Source: Chloroflexota bacterium (GTDB lineage: Bacteria > Chloroflexota > Anaerolineae > Promineifilales > Promineifilaceae). From it: a stretch of DNA of 32,794 bases. Where the stretch lies: the NCBI GenBank assembly GCA_018004935.1, contig JAGNBF010000047.1, positions 22,733 to 55,526 on the forward strand, read 5' to 3'. Under the pieces are notes generated by a model. It saw only the letters and a list, made by a program, of their open reading frames with translations. It was not told the DNA's origin and ran no database searches. The translations under genes were made by a program, and so were the position numbers. This document shows, piece by piece, positions 1,047-18,870 of this stretch; position 1 is the stretch's first letter, and each line of letters begins with the position of its first letter.

Positions 1047-3179
1047 ATGGCTTTCCGTTACGACAAAGACGAACAAAACATTGTGACCCTGACCCTGGAC
1101 ATGCCGGGGCGTTCCGCGAATGTGCTCAACGAAGAATTTGGCCGGGGGTTGGCTGAGGTGTTGGCCAGACTCCAGGCCGAAACGGCTCTGGCGGGGGTCA
1201 TTCTCACTTCTGGCAAAAAAACCTTTTTGGCCGGGGGCGACCTGGATTACCTCTACCGCGTCACCGACCCCGCTGAGGTGTTCGGGAGTACCCAACAACT
1301 CAAAACCGGGTTCCGTGCCCTGGAAATATTGGGCAAACCGGTGGTCGCCGCGCTGAACGGCACAGCCCTCGGTGGCGGTCTGGAACTGGCCCTGGCCTGC
1401 CATTACCGTATCTGCCTGGATAATCCCAAAATCAAAATCGGCTTCCCCGAAGTGACGCTGGGACTTCTGCCCGGTGGTGGCGGCGTGGCCCGGCTGACCC
1501 GCATGATCGGCTTGCAGGCGTCGTTCCCGTACCTGAGCGAAGGCAAACAGGTTGACCCGCAGCAGGCGAAAAAGGATGGCCTGATCAACGATCTGGCGGC
1601 GGATATGGACGAGATGATGGCAAAGGCACGGGCCTGGATCACGGCCAACCCCAGCGTCAAACAGCCCTGGGACCAGTCCGGTTACAAAATGCCGGGGGGT
1701 GATCCGAAGCGGCCGCAAATGGTGCAAATGCTCGCCATCGCCCCGGCCATCATGCGCAAAACTACCTACGGCAATTACCCTTCCCCCTCTGCGATTATGA
1801 GCGCGGCGGTCGAGGGAGCGATGGTGGATTTCGACACCGCCTGCCGCATCGAATCCCGCTATTTTGCCCAGGTGGCTACCAGCCAGGTCGCCAAAAACAT
1901 GATCGGCGCGTTCTGGTTCCAGCTCAACGCCATCAACGAAGGGCAGAGCCGCCCACAAGGGATTGAGCCGCAAGACACCCAAAAAGTTGGCGTTCTGGGG
2001 GCGGGCATGATGGGGCACGGCATCGCCTACGTGACCGCCTTCGCCGGGATGGATGTGGTGTTGAAGGATGCCACCTTAGAAAAAGCGGAAGCCGGGAAAG
2101 CCCTGGTAGAGAAAATTTTGCAGAAGCGGGTGAGCCGCGGCCGCATGACTCCCACCGACAAACAGACCATCCTTGACCGCATCCGCCCCACCGCCTCAGC
2201 CGAGGATTTACAGGGGTGCGACCTCATCATCGAAGCCGTCTTTGAAGACCGGGACCTCAAAGCCCGTGTCACCGCCGAAGCCGAGGCCCAAATCCCCCCG
2301 GACGCCATCTTCGGCTCCAACACCTCTACCCTGCCCATCACCGGTCTGGCCGAACGCTCCAGCCGCCCGGAAAACTTCATCGGCGTGCATTTCTTCTCCC
2401 CGGTGGACAAAATGCGGCTGGTGGAAATCATCGTCGGTGAAAAAACCAGCGACCGCGCTCTGGCGAAGGCGTTCGATTACACCCTGAAAATCCGCAAAAC
2501 CCCTATCGTCGTCAACGACAGCCGGGGGTTCTACACCTCACGCGTGTTTGGCACGTATGTCAACGAAGGTCTGGCCCTCTTAGCCGAAGGCCAACACCCC
2601 CGCGCCATCGAATCGGCCGGGTTGCAGGCGGGTATGCCCGTTGGCCCACTGGCCCTCTCCGATGAAGTGAGCATGAGCCTGATGATGCACATCCGCGAAC
2701 AGACGAAAAAGGATTTCGCCGCCGAAGGTCGCCCCTTCCCGGAGCATCCGGCATACCGGGTGCTGGACGTGATGGTGACGGAGCAGAATCGTTCCGGCAA
2801 GGCGCATGGGGCCGGTTTTTATGAGTATCCGGCGGCGGGGCAGAAACATTTGTGGCCGGAATTGCGCCAGTTGTTCCCCCTGAACGGGTTTGGCGAACTA
2901 CCGCAAGCGGAGATGATCGAGCGCATGATGTTCGCCCAGGCCATCGAAACGGTGCGCTGTTACGAAGAGGGTGTCCTGCGCTCCGTCGCCGATGCCAACA
3001 TTGGCAGTATTTTCGGCTGGGGATTCGCCCCCTTCTCCGGCGGCACGCTCCAATACATCAACGCCTACGGCCTGCCCCAGTTCGTCGCCCGCGCCCAAGA
3101 ACTCGCCCACAAATACGGCGACCGCTTTAACCCCCCGGCTTTGCTGATCGAGATGGCCGGGCAGGGGAAGAGCTTTTAA
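1047..3179 (+). CDS. fadJ: Fatty-acid oxidation protein: enoyl-CoA hydratase / 3-hydroxyacyl-CoA dehydrogenase
   Basis: This bifunctional beta-oxidation enzyme of 710 residues hydrates enoyl-CoA and then oxidises 3-hydroxyacyl-CoA with NAD+. The N-terminal crotonase domain (about 1-200) has the oxyanion-hole segment Ala-Gly-Gly-Asp-Leu-Asp (62-67), Asn-Gly-Thr-Ala-Leu-Gly-Gly-Gly (104-111) and the candidate catalytic glutamates E113 and E135. The dehydrogenase domain starts at about 313 with the Rossmann motif Gly-x-Gly-x-Met-x-Gly-His-Gly and carries the catalytic His at 448 in Gly-Val-His-Phe-Phe-Ser-Pro. The C-terminal helical domains follow (Asn-Asp-Ser-x-Gly-Phe-Tyr-Thr-Ser-Arg). The domain order is that of FadB/FadJ, not FadN. 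An ATG at 1002 is in frame but lies in the upstream repeat; 1047 has CTGGAGAA in front. No thiolase is nearby. Octamers lie at 1709 and 2137. Confidence 0.93.
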   Translation: MAFRYDKDEQNIVTLTLDMPGRSANVLNEEFGRGLAEVLARLQAETALAGVILTSGKKTFLAGGDLDYLYRVTDPAEVFGSTQQLKTGFRALEILGKPVVAALNGTALGGGLELALACHYRICLDNPKIKIGFPEVTLGLLPGGGGVARLTRMIGLQASFPYLSEGKQVDPQQAKKDGLINDLAADMDEMMAKARAWITANPSVKQPWDQSGYKMPGGDPKRPQMVQMLAIAPAIMRKTTYGNYPSPSAIMSAAVEGAMVDFDTACRIESRYFAQVATSQVAKNMIGAFWFQLNAINEGQSRPQGIEPQDTQKVGVLGAGMMGHGIAYVTAFAGMDVVLKDATLEKAEAGKALVEKILQKRVSRGRMTPTDKQTILDRIRPTASAEDLQGCDLIIEAVFEDRDLKARVTAEAEAQIPPDAIFGSNTSTLPITGLAERSSRPENFIGVHFFSPVDKMRLVEIIVGEKTSDRALAKAFDYTLKIRKTPIVVNDSRGFYTSRVFGTYVNEGLALLAEGQHPRAIESAGLQAGMPVGPLALSDEVSMSLMMHIREQTKKDFAAEGRPFPEHPAYRVLDVMVTEQNRSGKAHGAGFYEYPAAGQKHLWPELRQLFPLNGFGELPQAEMIERMMFAQAIETVRCYEEGVLRSVADANIGSIFGWGFAPFSGGTLQYINAYGLPQFVARAQELAHKYGDRFNPPALLIEMAGQGKSF

Positions 3180-3303
3180 GCTAGTCAGCCGGTCAGCTTG
3201 TCAGCCGGTCAGCCGGTCAGCAAAAAAGCTGACTAGCTGAAATGCTGAAATGCTGACTAGCTGAAGTGCTGAAGTGCTGAAGTGCTGAAATGCTGAAATG
3301 CTA
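3179..3303. repeat. Stem-loop plus tandem 9-10 bp repeats
   Basis: The stretch holds repeated GTCAGCCG units (3184-3220), an A-rich centre, and then many TGCTGAAA/TGCTGAAG units to 3303. AGCTAGTCAGC at 3179-3189 is inverted as GCTGACTAGCT at 3228-3238. The element starts on the last base of the fadJ stop codon and ends just before the Shine-Dalgarno of the next gene. Confidence 0.8.
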
Positions 3304-3317
3304 TCAAAGGAGCACAC

Positions 3318-5267: not shown

Positions 5268-5268
5268 G

Positions 5269-5334
5269 CTAAGGGCCTGTAAAAGATTAAGTTCCGCCAA
5301 GACCTGACAGGTTTCCGAAAACCTGTCAGGTCTA
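5269..5334. repeat. Dispersed hairpin element, family R3, copy 1
   Basis: A conserved lead (CTGTAAAAGATTAAGTTCCG) is followed by a strong hairpin with arms ACCTGACAGGTTT/AAACCTGTCAGGT at 5302-5331. The same lead plus hairpin occurs at 18757-18820. Both copies lie just downstream of a gene, here 2 bp after the GNAT stop codon, so it may terminate transcription. Confidence 0.85.
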
Positions 5335-5361: not shown

Positions 5362-5944
5362 CTAAGCGGTTAAAACTTGAAGGATTCGCAGGATCAACAG
5401 CCTGATATTCTCGTGTTCGGTTGTTATCCTGCTGATAATCAGTTGCAGTTTGTTTTCATCAATCAAAAAGCCATATATTTTCGTGGCGACATGACGAAAG
5501 GCCATTAACTCCAGCAGTGTCTGCCGCGTATGGTCGCCCATTTCAACCTCGTACTCTTCGATGAGCTGATAAAAACTCTGTAACGTTTCTTTATGGGAAA
5601 ATGCACCTGAAGGCGTAGCCATATGCAAATATTTGGTAAATCATAATATCAAATGTTCAATCGCGTTGTAATAACCAAAACATTCATACGTCAAAGCTGA
5701 AATTTTCATGGTCGGATCAGCATCTTGGGCGGCCATGTAGATTATTCTGTCAAAAATCTTGCCCAAATTCTCCTGACCAAACGCTATTTCGGCGTGGTTC
5801 AAAAGTCGGCAAACGGTGCTTAACACTTTGTAGGGCGATTTGGTAAATCGCCCACGAGACGATTTACCAAATCGTCCTACAAATTTGTAAAGTTGACCTG
5901 AACCATGCCGCTATTTCTTGGGCCAATTCATTGGCCTTGTTCAT
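5362..5944 (-). pseudogene. Broken helical-protein gene downstream of the nucleotidyltransferase
   Basis: Three minus-strand pieces look like one gene. The start ATG at 5944 overlaps the end of the nucleotidyltransferase by 17 bp and gives Met-Asn-Lys-Ala-Asn-Glu-Leu-Ala-Gln-Glu, but the frame ends inside the palindrome at 5828-5883. After the palindrome a second frame runs from 5826 to a TGA at 5641-5643. The same frame continues without a gap to 5362. The joined product would be about 165-170 residues, rich in helices (HEAT-like character by eye), with no catalytic motif I recognise. The overlap with the nucleotidyltransferase suggests a toxin-antitoxin style pair whose second gene was inactivated by repeat insertion and then gained a stop. 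The alternative is two small independent ORFs. No RX4-6H HEPN motif is evident. Confidence 0.55.
5828..5883. repeat. Palindromic element, family R6, inside the broken gene
   Basis: Arms 5828-5851 (TTTGTAGGGCGATTTGGTAA...) and 5860-5883 are complementary apart from one base. A partial copy (TTTGTAGAGCGATTTACCAAA) lies at 18824-18844. It sits exactly between the two frames of the broken gene. Confidence 0.85.
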
Positions 5945-6272
5945 ATAACACCTTCCCTTCGGCTAAAACTCGTTCACGGAAATAACCTGCCGTTTGTTCA
6001 AGGTTTGTTAAACTAACAGCATGAGAAGATAACATCAAACATTGGCCTAAAGCCAGAAAAAAATAATCATCTGCTAACCCCTGAACACAAATATCAATAT
6101 CCGAATTTTCACGGAAATCGCCACGAGCTAACGATCCATACAAGATAACTCGTTTGACATGATAAGTTTTCAGAACAGCCAAAATTTTCTCCAGGTCTTT
6201 TTCCATAGAGGGGACAAGATGGAGGTCGTTGAGCAGACTGAGTCTTCGTGGGGAGTTCGCAGATTTCATCAT
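5928..6272 (-). CDS. MNT-type nucleotidyltransferase domain protein
   Basis: This small cytoplasmic protein of about 115 residues belongs to the minimal nucleotidyltransferase fold. The signature is complete: Leu-Tyr-Gly-Ser-Leu-Ala-Arg-Gly-Asp, then Ser-Asp-Ile-Asp-Ile, which places the two metal-binding aspartates of the Gly-Ser...Asp-x-Asp motif. Such proteins often pair with HEPN or other helical partners as type VII-like toxin-antitoxin systems, in which the MNT protein can AMPylate the toxin. The partner position downstream is occupied by a broken gene. Start choice is open: Met at 6272 or 6269, or Met at 6206, and none has a clear Shine-Dalgarno. It is divergent from the thioesterase gene with almost no space between them. 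Base composition is more AT-rich than in neighbouring genes and no GCGGCCGC octamer is present, both compatible with recent transfer. Confidence 0.8.
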   Translation of the reverse strand: MMKSANSPRRLSLLNDLHLVPSMEKDLEKILAVLKTYHVKRVILYGSLARGDFRENSDIDICVQGLADDYFFLALGQCLMLSSHAVSLTNLEQTAGYFRERVLAEGKVLYEQGQ

Positions 6273-6304
6273 GGTCAAACAAAAGTATAGTTGAAGCAAA
6301 TCAA

Positions 6305-6745
6305 ATGACAACCACACAAAATATGACGAACATTCTACAACAACTCAGCCAACAAGCCCCCCAAAACGGTGGCTTAAAACTCCCACCGCCGGTGGCCTTA
6401 CTCATGGAAGTGGAGTTTGTCAGTTACGAAGAGGGGCAGGCGATGACGAATCGTTTTCCGGTGAAGGAGATGTACCAGAATCCGGTGGGGCACATGCAAG
6501 GGGGGATGATCGCGGCCGCGATAGACAACACCCTCGGCCCTCTCAGCTTTCTCCTGGCCCCCTACTCCACCACCACCCACCTCAACCTCACCTACATCCG
6601 CCCCGTCACCCCGGAGATGAGCCACATCCTCGTCACCGCCCGCCTCGTCGAGCGCACCCGCTCCCAACTCCACCTCACCGCCACCGTCACCAGCGAAGAG
6701 GGCAAAACCCTCGCCATCGCCCAGGCCACCCAACGAATCTTATAA
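6305..6745 (+). CDS. PaaI-like hotdog-fold thioesterase
   Basis: This protein of 146 residues has the hotdog acyl-CoA thioesterase pattern: Pro-Val-Gly-His-Met-Gln-Gly-Gly-Met-Ile-Ala-Ala-Ala-Ile-Asp, where His-x-x-Gly-Gly is the family signature and the Asp lies on the hot-dog helix. Beta strands with Thr-Thr-Thr-His-Leu-Asn-Leu-Thr-Tyr-Ile-Arg-Pro follow. It probably hydrolyses an acyl-CoA; substrate unknown. An upstream in-frame ATG at 6248 would overlap the divergent nucleotidyltransferase, so the ATG at 6305 is preferred. The octamer at 6512 encodes the Ala-Ala-Ala of the signature helix. Confidence 0.85.
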   Translation: MTTTQNMTNILQQLSQQAPQNGGLKLPPPVALLMEVEFVSYEEGQAMTNRFPVKEMYQNPVGHMQGGMIAAAIDNTLGPLSFLLAPYSTTTHLNLTYIRPVTPEMSHILVTARLVERTRSQLHLTATVTSEEGKTLAIAQATQRIL

Positions 6746-12495: not shown

Positions 12496-12801
12496 TACCT
12501 GCCATCCTCAACTCTTCGGCAACAGATGCCATGGGTTGAGCCTGTCGAAACCCGGCTCAACCTTCGACAAGCTCAGGCATCGCCAGATAACACCTGTATA
12601 GTGACGATATTTATAACCAAATCCGAACCTTAGCTAAATGACTTTCGTAAGAAAGATTTAATAAGCTAGTACTAAGGTCACATTACAGGTGGTCGCCGAG
12701 TTTCACTTCAGACCATTTTGTTACCCCGTCATTTTGCCAGCACGCCACCCTTGTCATCTCCACTTTTTCTCATCCTCTTTACCCAAAAAGGAAAGGACGT
12801 T
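12496..12801. other. Divergent intergenic region upstream of the repeat-rich secreted protein
   Basis: It contains an inverted repeat at 12525-12581 (GAGCCTGTCGAA facing TTCGACAAGCTC, with outer GATGCC/GGCATC). The rest, 12600-12780, is AT-richer and presumably holds promoters. AAAGGAAAGGA just before 12802 is the ribosome binding site. No operator is recognised. Confidence 0.55.
12525..12581. repeat. Inverted repeat with TTCGACAAGCTC arm
   Basis: GATGCC at 12525 pairs with GGCATC at 12576, and GAGCCTGTCGAA pairs with TTCGACAAGCTC apart from one base. This is a stem of over 20 bp with interruptions, and no other copy was noticed in the window. Confidence 0.75.
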
Positions 12802-15800
12802 ATGTCACGTAAATCACTCGTTCATCTGGGGCTCAGTTTAATTGTAGCACTATTCTTATGGACGTTAAGCGGGGCCAGCCCTGCGGCCGCGGAACCCAAC
12901 GCCACCTGTACTTTCACCGCGACAGGAGGCGTAGACTGGGGAACAAACGCTGGCTGGACAATTACCGGGGCAGGGTGTCCAGCCAGTGGTACAACTTACC
13001 CTGGCAATACAGTGGGTAATACCGACAATGTCGTTATTGCCGTAGGGAGTACTGTTACCCTGGATGTATCACCCCCTAATCCTGTCGGAACCATCACCTT
13101 CAATGGCGGAGCAGGGTCCAATCGCCTGACCTTCAATCCGGGTACAACCCTCACATCTGGCGACATAACCATGAACGGAACAACAGTCACTTCTGGAAAT
13201 CAGGCCACAATCTTGGCTGTAGGTTCCGGTACGTTGTCTGCTCCTTCCATCGCCCTCATTCCCGTTGCCGGTAATTACGGTAGCAACAACCGGCGCACCC
13301 AAATTACGATTTCCACAGGAACAATCAACGTTACCGGAAATATTACGACACCCAATGTAACTACAGGGAGTGGCACAGGGGTACTTTTTACCGGGGCTGG
13401 GGCAATCAATATAGGTGGTAACTTTATGGGTGATGCTCAAGCATCATTCACAGCCAGCACAAGCAGTATCAATCTCAATGGTGCGGCCCAAACCGCTGGC
13501 CCATACACCTATAACAACCTGACACTCTCCGGGAGTGGGGCCAAAACCATAACAGGAACTACAGTTAACGGTATTCTTTCCCTGCAAGGAACTGCCACCA
13601 CAGCAGGAACTTCACCGACCTATGGGGCGAATGCAGTTCTTGAATATGCGGGTAGTGGAGCGCAAACAACTTCCAATGTTGAGTTTCCTGCCGCTATGTC
13701 GGCGGATGTTACGATTAACAATGCATTGGGCGTGACATTAAATGCCGCTAAAACAGTGGCCGGTTTACTCACCATGACAAACGGCACTCTGAATATGGCC
13801 AATACCAATCTTGCCGTCGGATCATTAACCGGTTCAGGTGATTTGACACATTCATCGGGTACGGCCGGAGCCAGAACATTAACAATTGGGTCTGACAATA
13901 CCAGCCCAGCCGCCTACACGGGTGTAATCAGTAATGGCACGGCAACTTCTACCAGCGTCACGAAAACGGGCACAGGTACATTAATACTTTCAGGATTAAA
14001 CAGTTATACAGGTGCCACAACAATTAGTGCTGGCACACTGAGCATCAACACTTTGCAGAATGTCAGTGGTGGAACCAGCTCGCTAGGTGCACCGACAACT
14101 ACGGGTAACGGCACGATTGCCATTGACGCCACCGGGATATTACAGTACACAGGTTCCGGTCATTCTTCCAACCGCGTGATCAATGTGACGAATGATGGTG
14201 GCACGGTTGATGCATCGGGTAGTGGCACACTTACCCTATCAGGTGGAGTAACGGGTAGTAACGATAACCTTGTACTGACAGGAACAGGAACTGGGGTTCA
14301 AAGTGGTGTTATTGCAACTGGGGCCGCCACTGTAACCAAGAACGGCACGGGTACCTGGATACTTTCAGGATTAAACTCTTATACAGGTGTCACAACAATT
14401 AGTGCTGGCACACTGAGCATCAACACTTTGCAGAATGTCAGTGGTGGAACCAGCTCGCTAGGTGCACCGACAACTACGGGTAATGGCACGATTGCCATCG
14501 GGGCCACCGGGGTATTACAGTACACAGGGTCTGGTCATACCTCAAATCGGGTAATAAACGTAACGGCCGATGGTGGTACGGTTGATGCCTCGGGTAGTGG
14601 CACATTTACCTTAACGGGTGGTGTAACGGGTACGGGAAATAACCTTGTCCTGACAGGAACTGGGGTCGGGGTCGAAAGTGGCGTTATCGCTACAGCAGGA
14701 GCCACATTAACCAAAAACGGTTCCGGCACCTGGACTCTTGCGGGAGTAAATACCTATACCGGTGGAGCAACACTCAACACCGGAACCTTAAACATCAACA
14801 ATGCCAACGCGCTTGGTACTGTGGCCGGGACGTTCACTATTAACGGGGGCACCATTGACAATACGAGTGGGGCTAACATTACAACGCTCAGTTACCCCCT
14901 GGCACTGAACGGTGATTTTGCTTATAGCGGTTCGGTTCCTCGGAACCTGAATCTGGGAACCGGTACAGTCACGCCGAATGCTGACCGGCAAATAACGGTT
15001 GATGCAGGCACACTGACCATCGGTGGGACACTCTCTGCCGGTACGTTAAACCTGACAAAAGCAGGTTCAGGCACGTTGAGCTTCGGGGCCAATGCAGTCA
15101 CATTGAATAATCTTACCATTAGCGCGGGGTCTCTAACCGGAACTTCAGGGGTGCTGAGTCTGGCGGGGAATTTAAACAACAATGGCACATTCACGCATAA
15201 TAACGGGAGTGTCACCATAAATGGCACAACCACCCAAACCATTAGCGGCAATGTGACCCCCTTCAACAACCTGACGGTTAACCTCAATGCTGTCGTCGTC
15301 ATACCCAGTACCAATATCCCCACTGTAGCAGGCACGATGACGAACAATGGCACACTGCAACAAACGCTTAATGTTGATAACAGTGCTCCGGTTTCCTTTT
15401 TGACTATCAGTACGGATAAATATCGCGGAGTAGATATTGATACGACGGGGACCGGGACGAATTTGGGAGCAGTCACGGTTACGGTGCGGAGTACGGCGGT
15501 GTTTGACTGCCCTAATGTGAGCGGTGTGGCACCGATTTATGCACGACGTTGTTTTGATATAACGCCAACAAATCAGGGCGCGGCCGCAGTCACCCTCTGG
15601 GTTTTGGATAGTGAACTAGGTGCTATCCCTACTGGTGAGATTGTGCCATACCGCTTCGCCACTGGCTCGTGGGGGGCGTTGACCGGTGTAACCAGAGGGT
15701 CAGGTAGCAATAACTACTCCTACACACAGGGCACTACCCCAGGATTTTCTAACTTCCTGGTTGGTCAGTCTGGTTTCAGTCCCACAGCCATCACCTTGAG

Positions 15801-15903
15801 CAATGCCGGGGTAATTTCTGGTGTGAGTGGTTTATGGCTGGGGTTGGTAGGGTTGTTGTTGTTGCTAAGTGCGGGCTGGTGGGTACGCGGCCGCAATGCC
15901 TGA
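12802..15903 (+). CDS. Secreted protein with autotransporter-associated beta-strand repeats and C-terminal anchor
   Basis: This large exported protein has 1033 residues. A signal peptide (about 1-31, ending Ser-Pro-Ala-Ala-Ala-Glu) is followed by Gly/Thr/Asn-rich sequence expected to form a beta-helix. Three units carry the PATR-type signature Thr-Lys-x-Gly-x-Gly-Thr-x-x-Leu-x-Gly-x-Asn-x-Tyr-Thr-Gly, spaced by exactly 375 bp. The third contains Thr-Leu-Ala-Gly-Val-Asn-Thr-Tyr-Thr-Gly-Gly. A C-terminal domain (about 850-990) with two Cys residues precedes a membrane helix and the tail Trp-Trp-Val-Arg-Gly-Arg-Asn-Ala. There is no autotransporter barrel, so it is probably anchored in the cytoplasmic membrane or sorted through this tail. 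ATG 12802 has AAAGGAAAGGA upstream; the longer frame to 12718 is not needed. A terminator follows. Adhesion is plausible but unproven. Confidence 0.8.
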   Translation: MSRKSLVHLGLSLIVALFLWTLSGASPAAAEPNATCTFTATGGVDWGTNAGWTITGAGCPASGTTYPGNTVGNTDNVVIAVGSTVTLDVSPPNPVGTITFNGGAGSNRLTFNPGTTLTSGDITMNGTTVTSGNQATILAVGSGTLSAPSIALIPVAGNYGSNNRRTQITISTGTINVTGNITTPNVTTGSGTGVLFTGAGAINIGGNFMGDAQASFTASTSSINLNGAAQTAGPYTYNNLTLSGSGAKTITGTTVNGILSLQGTATTAGTSPTYGANAVLEYAGSGAQTTSNVEFPAAMSADVTINNALGVTLNAAKTVAGLLTMTNGTLNMANTNLAVGSLTGSGDLTHSSGTAGARTLTIGSDNTSPAAYTGVISNGTATSTSVTKTGTGTLILSGLNSYTGATTISAGTLSINTLQNVSGGTSSLGAPTTTGNGTIAIDATGILQYTGSGHSSNRVINVTNDGGTVDASGSGTLTLSGGVTGSNDNLVLTGTGTGVQSGVIATGAATVTKNGTGTWILSGLNSYTGVTTISAGTLSINTLQNVSGGTSSLGAPTTTGNGTIAIGATGVLQYTGSGHTSNRVINVTADGGTVDASGSGTFTLTGGVTGTGNNLVLTGTGVGVESGVIATAGATLTKNGSGTWTLAGVNTYTGGATLNTGTLNINNANALGTVAGTFTINGGTIDNTSGANITTLSYPLALNGDFAYSGSVPRNLNLGTGTVTPNADRQITVDAGTLTIGGTLSAGTLNLTKAGSGTLSFGANAVTLNNLTISAGSLTGTSGVLSLAGNLNNNGTFTHNNGSVTINGTTTQTISGNVTPFNNLTVNLNAVVVIPSTNIPTVAGTMTNNGTLQQTLNVDNSAPVSFLTISTDKYRGVDIDTTGTGTNLGAVTVTVRSTAVFDCPNVSGVAPIYARRCFDITPTNQGAAAVTLWVLDSELGAIPTGEIVPYRFATGSWGALTGVTRGSGSNNYSYTQGTTPGFSNFLVGQSGFSPTAITLSNAGVISGVSGLWLGLVGLLLLLSAGWWVRGRNA
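13975..14760 (+). repeat. Coding tandem repeat, 375-bp period
   Basis: Equivalent codons fall at 13987, 14362 and 14737. Units 1 and 2 are almost identical in DNA over roughly 130 bp (about 13986-14125 against 14361-14500), including synonymous positions, and similar beyond. Unit 3 is diverged. This points to a recent in-frame duplication of one 125-residue unit. Confidence 0.85.
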
Positions 15904-18728: not shown

Positions 18729-18756
18729 CACTGGCAGAAATCATAACGATACCTGG

Positions 18757-18820
18757 CTTAGGGTCTGTAAAAGATTAAGTTCCGTCAAAACCTGACAGGT
18801 TTTCGGAAACCTGTCAGGTC
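18757..18820. repeat. Dispersed hairpin element, family R3, copy 2
   Basis: The lead GTCTGTAAAAGATTAAGTTC matches 5274 onwards, followed by the hairpin AACCTGACAGGTTTTCGGAA with its complement and then TCTTG. It follows the histidine-kinase stop by 28 bp and could terminate that transcript. Confidence 0.85.
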
Positions 18821-18870
18821 TTGTTTGTAGAGCGATTTACCAAAGGGTGTGTTGCAAATGAGTTGAATAA

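What the first reader, a model, noticed from the sequence alone, without database searches (positions are those of the whole stretch)
5362..6272. Nucleotidyltransferase pair broken by a repeat insertion and a nonsense codon
The MNT gene is intact (Gly-Ser...Asp-x-Asp). Its overlapping partner gene is split exactly by the R6 palindrome at 5828-5883 and again by a TGA at 5641-5643 with the same frame continuing. The partner looks helical but lacks the HEPN RX4-6H motif, so the intact version may be a new class of MNT partner.
Basis: partly seen in the sequence, partly recalled or inferred. Interest (0 to 1): 0.6.

Follow-up and report, generated by a model that had tools for sequence, protein, structure and literature searches.

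The report
Dead HEPN–MNT toxin–antitoxin pair
This is a broken bacterial toxin–antitoxin gene pair, with its probable toxin gene interrupted by a small jumping DNA element and a premature stop; the intact relatives form a little-studied branch of a known toxin family in which a usual catalytic histidine is always a lysine.

Summary
An open MNT gene (5928-6317, minus) overlaps a partner gene that carries two lesions. The insert is not just the 5828-5883 palindrome. It is a 119-bp MITE (5791-5909) with terminal inverted repeats (GGCRTGGTTCA) and an 8-bp target duplication (GCTATTTC), present in at least 40 near-identical copies in this genome. The second lesion is an in-frame TGA (5641-5643) at a position that is Arg in relatives.

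Homologues of the partner occur beside or fused to MNT genes in at least six phyla. They belong to Pfam HepT-like_2 (PF20797) and are predicted to have the HEPN fold; the closest solved structures are HEPN toxins of HEPN-MNT pairs (Z about 15). The canonical R-x4-H-x-Y motif is present as R-H-V-A-T-K-I-Y: Arg and the AMP-acceptor Tyr are kept, the catalytic His is Lys. This Lys form is one deep, fully supported clade. It is therefore a variant of a known partner, not a new class.

In 16 loci the partner is disrupted in 6 and the MNT in none, which hints that the partner is the costly (toxic) half. The window copy itself is a recent pseudogene.

The parts
5928..6317 (-). MNT (minimal nucleotidyltransferase) gene, open; the GTG at 6317 is the longest start, the ATG at 6269 is likelier. 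GSLARGDFRENSDID = GSX10DXD; third Asp replaced by Asn (VSLTN)
   Evidence: ORF; Pfam Polbeta 3e-14; NCBIfam MntA_antitoxin 49.6 bits, cut-off 60; alignment with relatives
5910..5944 (-). N-terminal fragment of the HEPN (HepT-like_2) partner, MNKANELAQEI.., overlapping the MNT frame by 17 nt
   Evidence: frame 2 translation; resembles MNANEFEQEV of L019; relatives overlap their MNT by 11-23 nt, L018 and L024 by more
5910..5917 (.). target-site duplication copy GCTATTTC
5791..5909 (.). 119-bp MITE: terminal inverted repeats GGCGTGGTTCA / GGCATGGTTCA, strong internal palindrome (5828-5883), no coding capacity
   Evidence: ends; fold, z -8.2; genome copies; 8-bp duplications at other copies
5783..5790 (.). 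target-site duplication copy GCTATTTC
5362..5790 (-). body of the HEPN partner pseudogene; closes at the natural stop 5364-5362
   Evidence: tblastn through the stop; profile hit 206 bits over positions 8-149; PF20797 35.4 bits
5641..5643 (-). in-frame TGA at a position that is Arg (residue 58) in relatives
5473..5496 (-). RHVATKIY motif: Arg and AMP-acceptor Tyr of RX4HXY conserved, His replaced by Lys (codon 5479-5481)

Best explanation
The locus is a recently killed HEPN-MNT (type VII-like) toxin-antitoxin module whose HEPN belongs to a lysine-bearing branch of HepT-like_2. Shown: the MNT gene lies first and overlaps the HEPN gene. A 119-bp MITE inserted near codon 11 with an 8-bp target duplication, and a nonsense codon lies at residue 58, so no full HEPN protein can be made by ordinary translation. 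Intact relatives pair a GSX10DXD MNT with a predicted five-helix HEPN carrying R-H-x3-K-x-Y. Inferred: in intact pairs the HEPN acts on RNA, using the invariant Arg-His pair with Lys in the place of the usual His. The MNT silences it by moving AMP onto the invariant Tyr. Loss of the HEPN relieves the cell of a cost and leaves the MNT as an orphan that is free to decay.
For: Homology of the body to intact relatives beside MNT genes. PF20797 membership and profile alignment with H-type members. Predicted HEPN fold (pLDDT 86) whose best solved matches are HEPN toxins 7AE6, 7AE8, 7AE9, 7AE2 and 6M6U, Z 14.7-15.9. Natural MNT-HEPN fusions in two cyanobacteria, modelled with pLDDT 92.8 and pTM 0.83, matching an MNT antitoxin (8XEO, Z 13.0) and HEPN toxins (Z 15.9). 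Tyr conserved in all 79 rows read and Arg in 77. MITE anatomy and copies with 8-bp duplications of their own. Partner disrupted in 6 of 16 loci and MNT in 0. AMPylation of the Tyr in RX4HXY is established for HepT/MntA (PMC7641770).
Against: No activity was tested. RNase action is an extrapolation: the catalytic His is Lys, and in the Legionella HEPN the RX4H residues are not the catalytic site at all (PMC11586414). The window MNT lacks the third Asp. The disruption asymmetry rests on six loci, most from metagenome assemblies where frameshifts can be errors, and is only weakly significant (p about 0.04-0.06, rough length model).
Confidence: 0.72

Rival explanations
1. The Lys-type HEPN is a catalytically dead HEPN kept as a substrate-binding or regulatory subunit of the nucleotidyltransferase, which modifies some other target. 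The pair is a domesticated enzyme and not a toxin-antitoxin.
For: The catalytic His is absent. Fusions of MNT to HEPN, seen here in two cyanobacteria, are typical of inactive HEPN domains according to PMC3710099. The fusion model also weakly resembles two-domain ANT/kanamycin nucleotidyltransferases (Z about 10-11, rmsd 12-13).
Against: Arg, the adjacent His, Lys and Tyr are invariant in the clade across six phyla, more than a binding role needs. The HEPN half, not the enzyme half, is the one repeatedly lost.
Confidence: 0.25
2. The partner is a genuinely new class of MNT partner unrelated to HEPN.
For: Direct profile comparison with three DUF86 proteins gave no match, and Foldseek E-values against HEPN chains are weak.
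Against: PF20797 membership, hhalign 98.2% with H-type HepT-like_2 members and no gap across the motif, and the best PDB matches are HEPN toxins of HEPN-MNT pairs and HEPN-family proteins.
Confidence: 0.03
3. The disruption is not decay but a regulated or reversible switch (MITE excision, stop read-through) that turns the toxin on and off.
For: The sequence beyond both lesions is well conserved, including the whole motif, and the MITE is young (mostly 95-100% identical copies).
Against: There are two independent lesions, and the other broken relatives carry different lesions in different places, which is what loss under selection gives. MITE plus duplication adds 127 bp, not a multiple of three.
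Confidence: 0.04

Closest known systems
HepT/MntA (HEPN-MNT, type VII toxin-antitoxin; Shewanella SO_3166/SO_3165, PMC7641770)
   Same: MNT first, overlapping HEPN; GSX10DXD in the MNT; five-helix HEPN; Arg and acceptor Tyr in register (R-x4-?-x-Y)
   Different: Lys instead of His in RX4HXY; the residue after Arg is an invariant His; different Pfam family (PF20797, not PF01934/PF08780); the window copy is dead
Pfam HepT-like_2 (PF20797)
   Same: Family membership by score; invariant RH and Tyr; conserved Glu in helix 2 and His after P-x-G
   Different: Sampled members have Asn (33 rows), His (17), Ser (3) or Gln (1) where this clade has Lys (25); the clade sits on a long branch with 100/100 support
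Class II HEPN/MNT pairs (PF05168)
   Same: An MNT with GSX10DXD beside a HEPN that keeps a conserved Tyr but lacks RX4H (PMC7641770)
   Different: Different HEPN family; there Asp often replaces His (PMC3710099)
MITEs (non-autonomous transposable elements)
   Same: Short, non-coding, terminal inverted repeats, fixed-length target duplications, many near-identical copies
   Different: No autonomous partner element was identified here; the 8-bp duplication and GG-starting ends recall ISL3-type elements (own knowledge, untested)

Membership tests
HEPN-MNT (HepT/MntA, type VII) toxin-antitoxin | MNT gene directly upstream of, and overlapping or fused to, the HEPN gene | tested here: met
   17-nt overlap in the window; overlaps of 11-23 nt in most intact relatives, more in L018 and L024; in-frame fusions in L023 and L027; an MNT motif upstream of 24 of 25 Lys-type rows
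HEPN-MNT (HepT/MntA, type VII) toxin-antitoxin | GSX10DXD in the MNT | tested here: met
   GSLARGDFRENSDID, window 5928-6317
HEPN-MNT (HepT/MntA, type VII) toxin-antitoxin | RX4HXY in the HEPN | tested here: not met
   RHVATKIY: Lys instead of His in the window and in all relatives whose motif is whole
HEPN-MNT (HepT/MntA, type VII) toxin-antitoxin | Acceptor Tyr of the motif | tested here: met
   Tyr in 79 of 79 rows read
HEPN-MNT (HepT/MntA, type VII) toxin-antitoxin | HEPN fold of the partner | tested here: met
   On intact relative L017: five helices, Z 15.9 to 7AE6, above unrelated helical rows at about Z 10
HEPN-MNT (HepT/MntA, type VII) toxin-antitoxin | Toxic RNase neutralised by AMPylation | not testable with these tools
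   needs experiment
NCBIfam MntA antitoxin (NF047752) | Score above the curated cut-off of 60 bits | tested here: not met
   49.6 bits: a relative, not an equivalog by that model
Pfam HepT-like_2 (PF20797) | Score above the gathering cut-off of 27 bits | tested here: met
   34.5-44.6 bits for five intact relatives; the window body 35.4 bits read through the stop; the C-terminal piece alone 26.0
MITE | Terminal inverted repeats and fixed-length target duplication | tested here: met
   GGCRTGGTTCA ends, GCTATTTC duplication here, 8-bp duplications at other copies
MITE | Many copies, no coding capacity | tested here: met
   about 45 copies found at 83-100% identity, mostly 95-100%; 119 bp without a usable ORF
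MITE | Related autonomous transposon with the same ends | tested here: inconclusive
   none in the twelve extra regions examined

The most novel reading that the evidence does not exclude
The Lys-type HepT-like_2 clade is an active toxin that cuts its target with an Arg-His-(x3)-Lys centre instead of the Arg...His dyad of other HEPN RNases, and is silenced by AMPylation of the adjacent Tyr: a distinct catalytic variant of HEPN-MNT systems.
Probability: 0.3. Interest if true: 0.5.

Novelty: new variant of a known kind. Interest (0 to 1): 0.33.

Why it matters
The window copy itself is an ordinary pseudogene. What it led to is a compact test case: a deep clade of MNT partners, spread over at least six phyla, in which the residue thought to be the HEPN catalytic His is invariably Lys while Arg and the AMP-acceptor Tyr are kept. 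The wider HepT-like_2 family keeps Arg, the next-door His and Tyr but varies that position (Asn, His, Ser, Gln, Lys). That makes it directly testable whether RX4-6H is really the catalytic centre of MNT-linked HEPN toxins, a point already questioned for Legionella (PMC11586414).

Tried and rejected
Search of plasmids with the partner: none; with a fusion protein: only the MNT half of DUF86-type systems. Viral contigs: none. Solved structures by sequence: only chance hits. Direct hhalign against three DUF86 proteins failed, so the link to canonical HepT rests on H-type HepT-like_2 members and on the fold. An early reading that many more Chloroflexota copies are broken (6 of 8, and notebook entry) was withdrawn: the tool counted natural terminators, and one search showed G704 and G301 to be intact, leaving 4 of 8. 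The idea that the Lys is a decay mutation of this copy was rejected: it is invariant in the clade, including L091 and L119, which were found by profile and not by the HVATKIYG pattern. No autonomous transposon for the MITE was found.

Full report
What is in the window. On the minus strand an open MNT gene (5928-6317) is followed by a partner gene starting at an ATG at 5944-5942, 17 nt inside the MNT frame. Pfam gives Polbeta/NTP_transf_2 for the MNT (3e-14) and a sub-threshold HepT-like_2 hit (1e-5, 26.0 bits) for the last 88 codons of the partner. Read in the frame of the whole body, the partner scores 35.4 bits for HepT-like_2, above the cut-off, with one TGA inside.

The insert. Comparison with intact relatives shows that the partner begins MNKANELAQEI.. 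and resumes EIAFGQENLGKIF.., with the DNA GCTATTTC on both sides of the break (5783-5790 and 5910-5917). The inserted DNA is exactly 119 bp (5791-5909), begins GGCGTGGTTCA and ends TGAACCATGCC, and has a long palindrome inside. The same element occurs about 45 times in the 8-Mb genome, mostly at 95-100% identity, even though only 40 of 571 first-look candidates were scored. One end of it is matched about 190 times against 1 for a reversed-pattern control. Other copies show their own 8-bp duplications, for example CCATTCTC, ACAATCGC and GATTTTTC. The duplication shows that this is an insertion into a formerly continuous gene.

The nonsense codon. TGA at 5641-5643 falls where relatives have Arg58. 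An intact relative aligns across it without a gap at 60% identity. I did not remove the insert or join the frames; the intact protein was studied through natural relatives instead.

What the intact partner is. Thirteen loci in public genomes encode a close relative, and two more (L091, L119) came from profile searches of whole genomes. They lie in Chloroflexota, Cyanobacteriota, Acidobacteriota, Armatimonadota, Pseudomonadota and Thermodesulfobacteriota, always downstream of an MNT, and in two cyanobacteria they are fused to it in frame. Five intact ones score 34.5-44.6 bits for HepT-like_2, cut-off 27. The profile aligns with H-type HepT-like_2 members along 132 columns, with no gap in the motif (98.2%, E 4.7e-14). 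AlphaFold gives a five-helix bundle (pLDDT 86.4) whose best solved matches are HEPN toxins of HEPN-MNT pairs: 7AE6 Z 15.9, 7AE8 15.5, 6M6U 14.7, 8XDJ 12.5, against about 10 for unrelated helical proteins. The natural fusion is modelled at pLDDT 92.8 and pTM 0.83, with one half matching the MNT antitoxin 8XEO and the other HEPN toxins.

The motif. In HepT/MntA the HEPN motif is R-x4-H-x-Y and the MNT adds AMP to the Tyr (PMC7641770). Here it is R-H-V-A-T-K-I-Y. Across the HepT-like_2 rows read, Arg is present in 77 of 79, the next residue is His in 79, Tyr is present in 79, and the sixth position is Asn (33), Lys (25), His (17), Ser (3) or Gln (1), near-duplicates included. The Lys proteins form a single group with 100/100 support and a stem of 2.4 changes per site. 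Caution: thirteen of the Lys loci were found with search patterns that included HVATKIYG, so the lack of variation is partly built in; L091 and L119 were not chosen that way, and both have Lys.

Which half is lost. Among 16 primary Lys-type loci the partner is disrupted in 6: the window; L021 with two stops, one at the motif Arg; L022 with its N-terminal half missing; L024 with a C-terminal frameshift; L025 with a frameshift; L029 with a stop at codon 7 and a C-terminal frameshift. The MNT is open in all 16. A crude length-weighted model gives p of 0.04-0.06. In-frame stops also look commoner than in the other HepT-like_2 hits (3 of 16 against about 3 of 158, p about 0.01; the 158 is my approximate count of that listing), but that list was ordered by score and so leans to intact genes. 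I take this as suggestive that the HEPN is the costly half. Some of the frameshifts may be assembly errors.

How it most likely works. By analogy with HepT/MntA (shown there, inferred here), the HEPN would be an RNA-acting toxin and the MNT would neutralise it by AMPylating Tyr. Whether Lys can serve in place of His, whether the adjacent invariant His takes over, or whether, as in Legionella (PMC11586414), catalysis lies elsewhere in the dimer, is open. The main rival is a dead HEPN kept as a partner subunit, as reported for fused MNT-HEPN proteins (PMC3710099).

Verdict. The window feature is a decayed toxin-antitoxin pair, killed by a MITE and a stop codon. The intact family is a new variant of a known kind, not a new class of MNT partner. 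No paper in the held library names this family or motif, which is weak evidence because most papers are not held.

Noticed in passing
L006 (own genome, C18:31017-34322): A second decayed MNT/HepT-like_2 pair in the same genome: truncated MNT, HEPN with a stop after WHR and another at the motif Tyr. A copy of the same MITE with an 8-bp duplication (TTAACTTA) lies just upstream.
   Followed up: partly
L125/L126 (own genome, C143:71440-71717): A canonical DUF86/HepT gene beside an MNT is split into two frames, so several HEPN genes of this genome are broken.
   Followed up: no
L112 (own genome, C50:7600-8650): Tandem cluster of at least five copies of the 119-bp MITE within about 1 kb.
   Followed up: no
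L027:5735-6007: A second, partial Lys-type HEPN fragment on the same Oscillatoria contig, motif HHVATKIY, without a detectable MNT.
   Followed up: no
5268-5333 and 18756-18821: 66-nt direct repeat, 91% identical, containing a palindromic stretch (CCTGACAGGTTT..AAACCTGTCAGG); a different small repeat family from the MITE.
   Followed up: no
3171-3304: Minisatellite with 8-bp period (AGCTGAAATGCTGA...) between two genes.
   Followed up: no
13952-14251 and 14327-14626: 300-bp direct repeat (87%) inside the long repetitive secreted-protein-like ORF 12718-15903.
   Followed up: no
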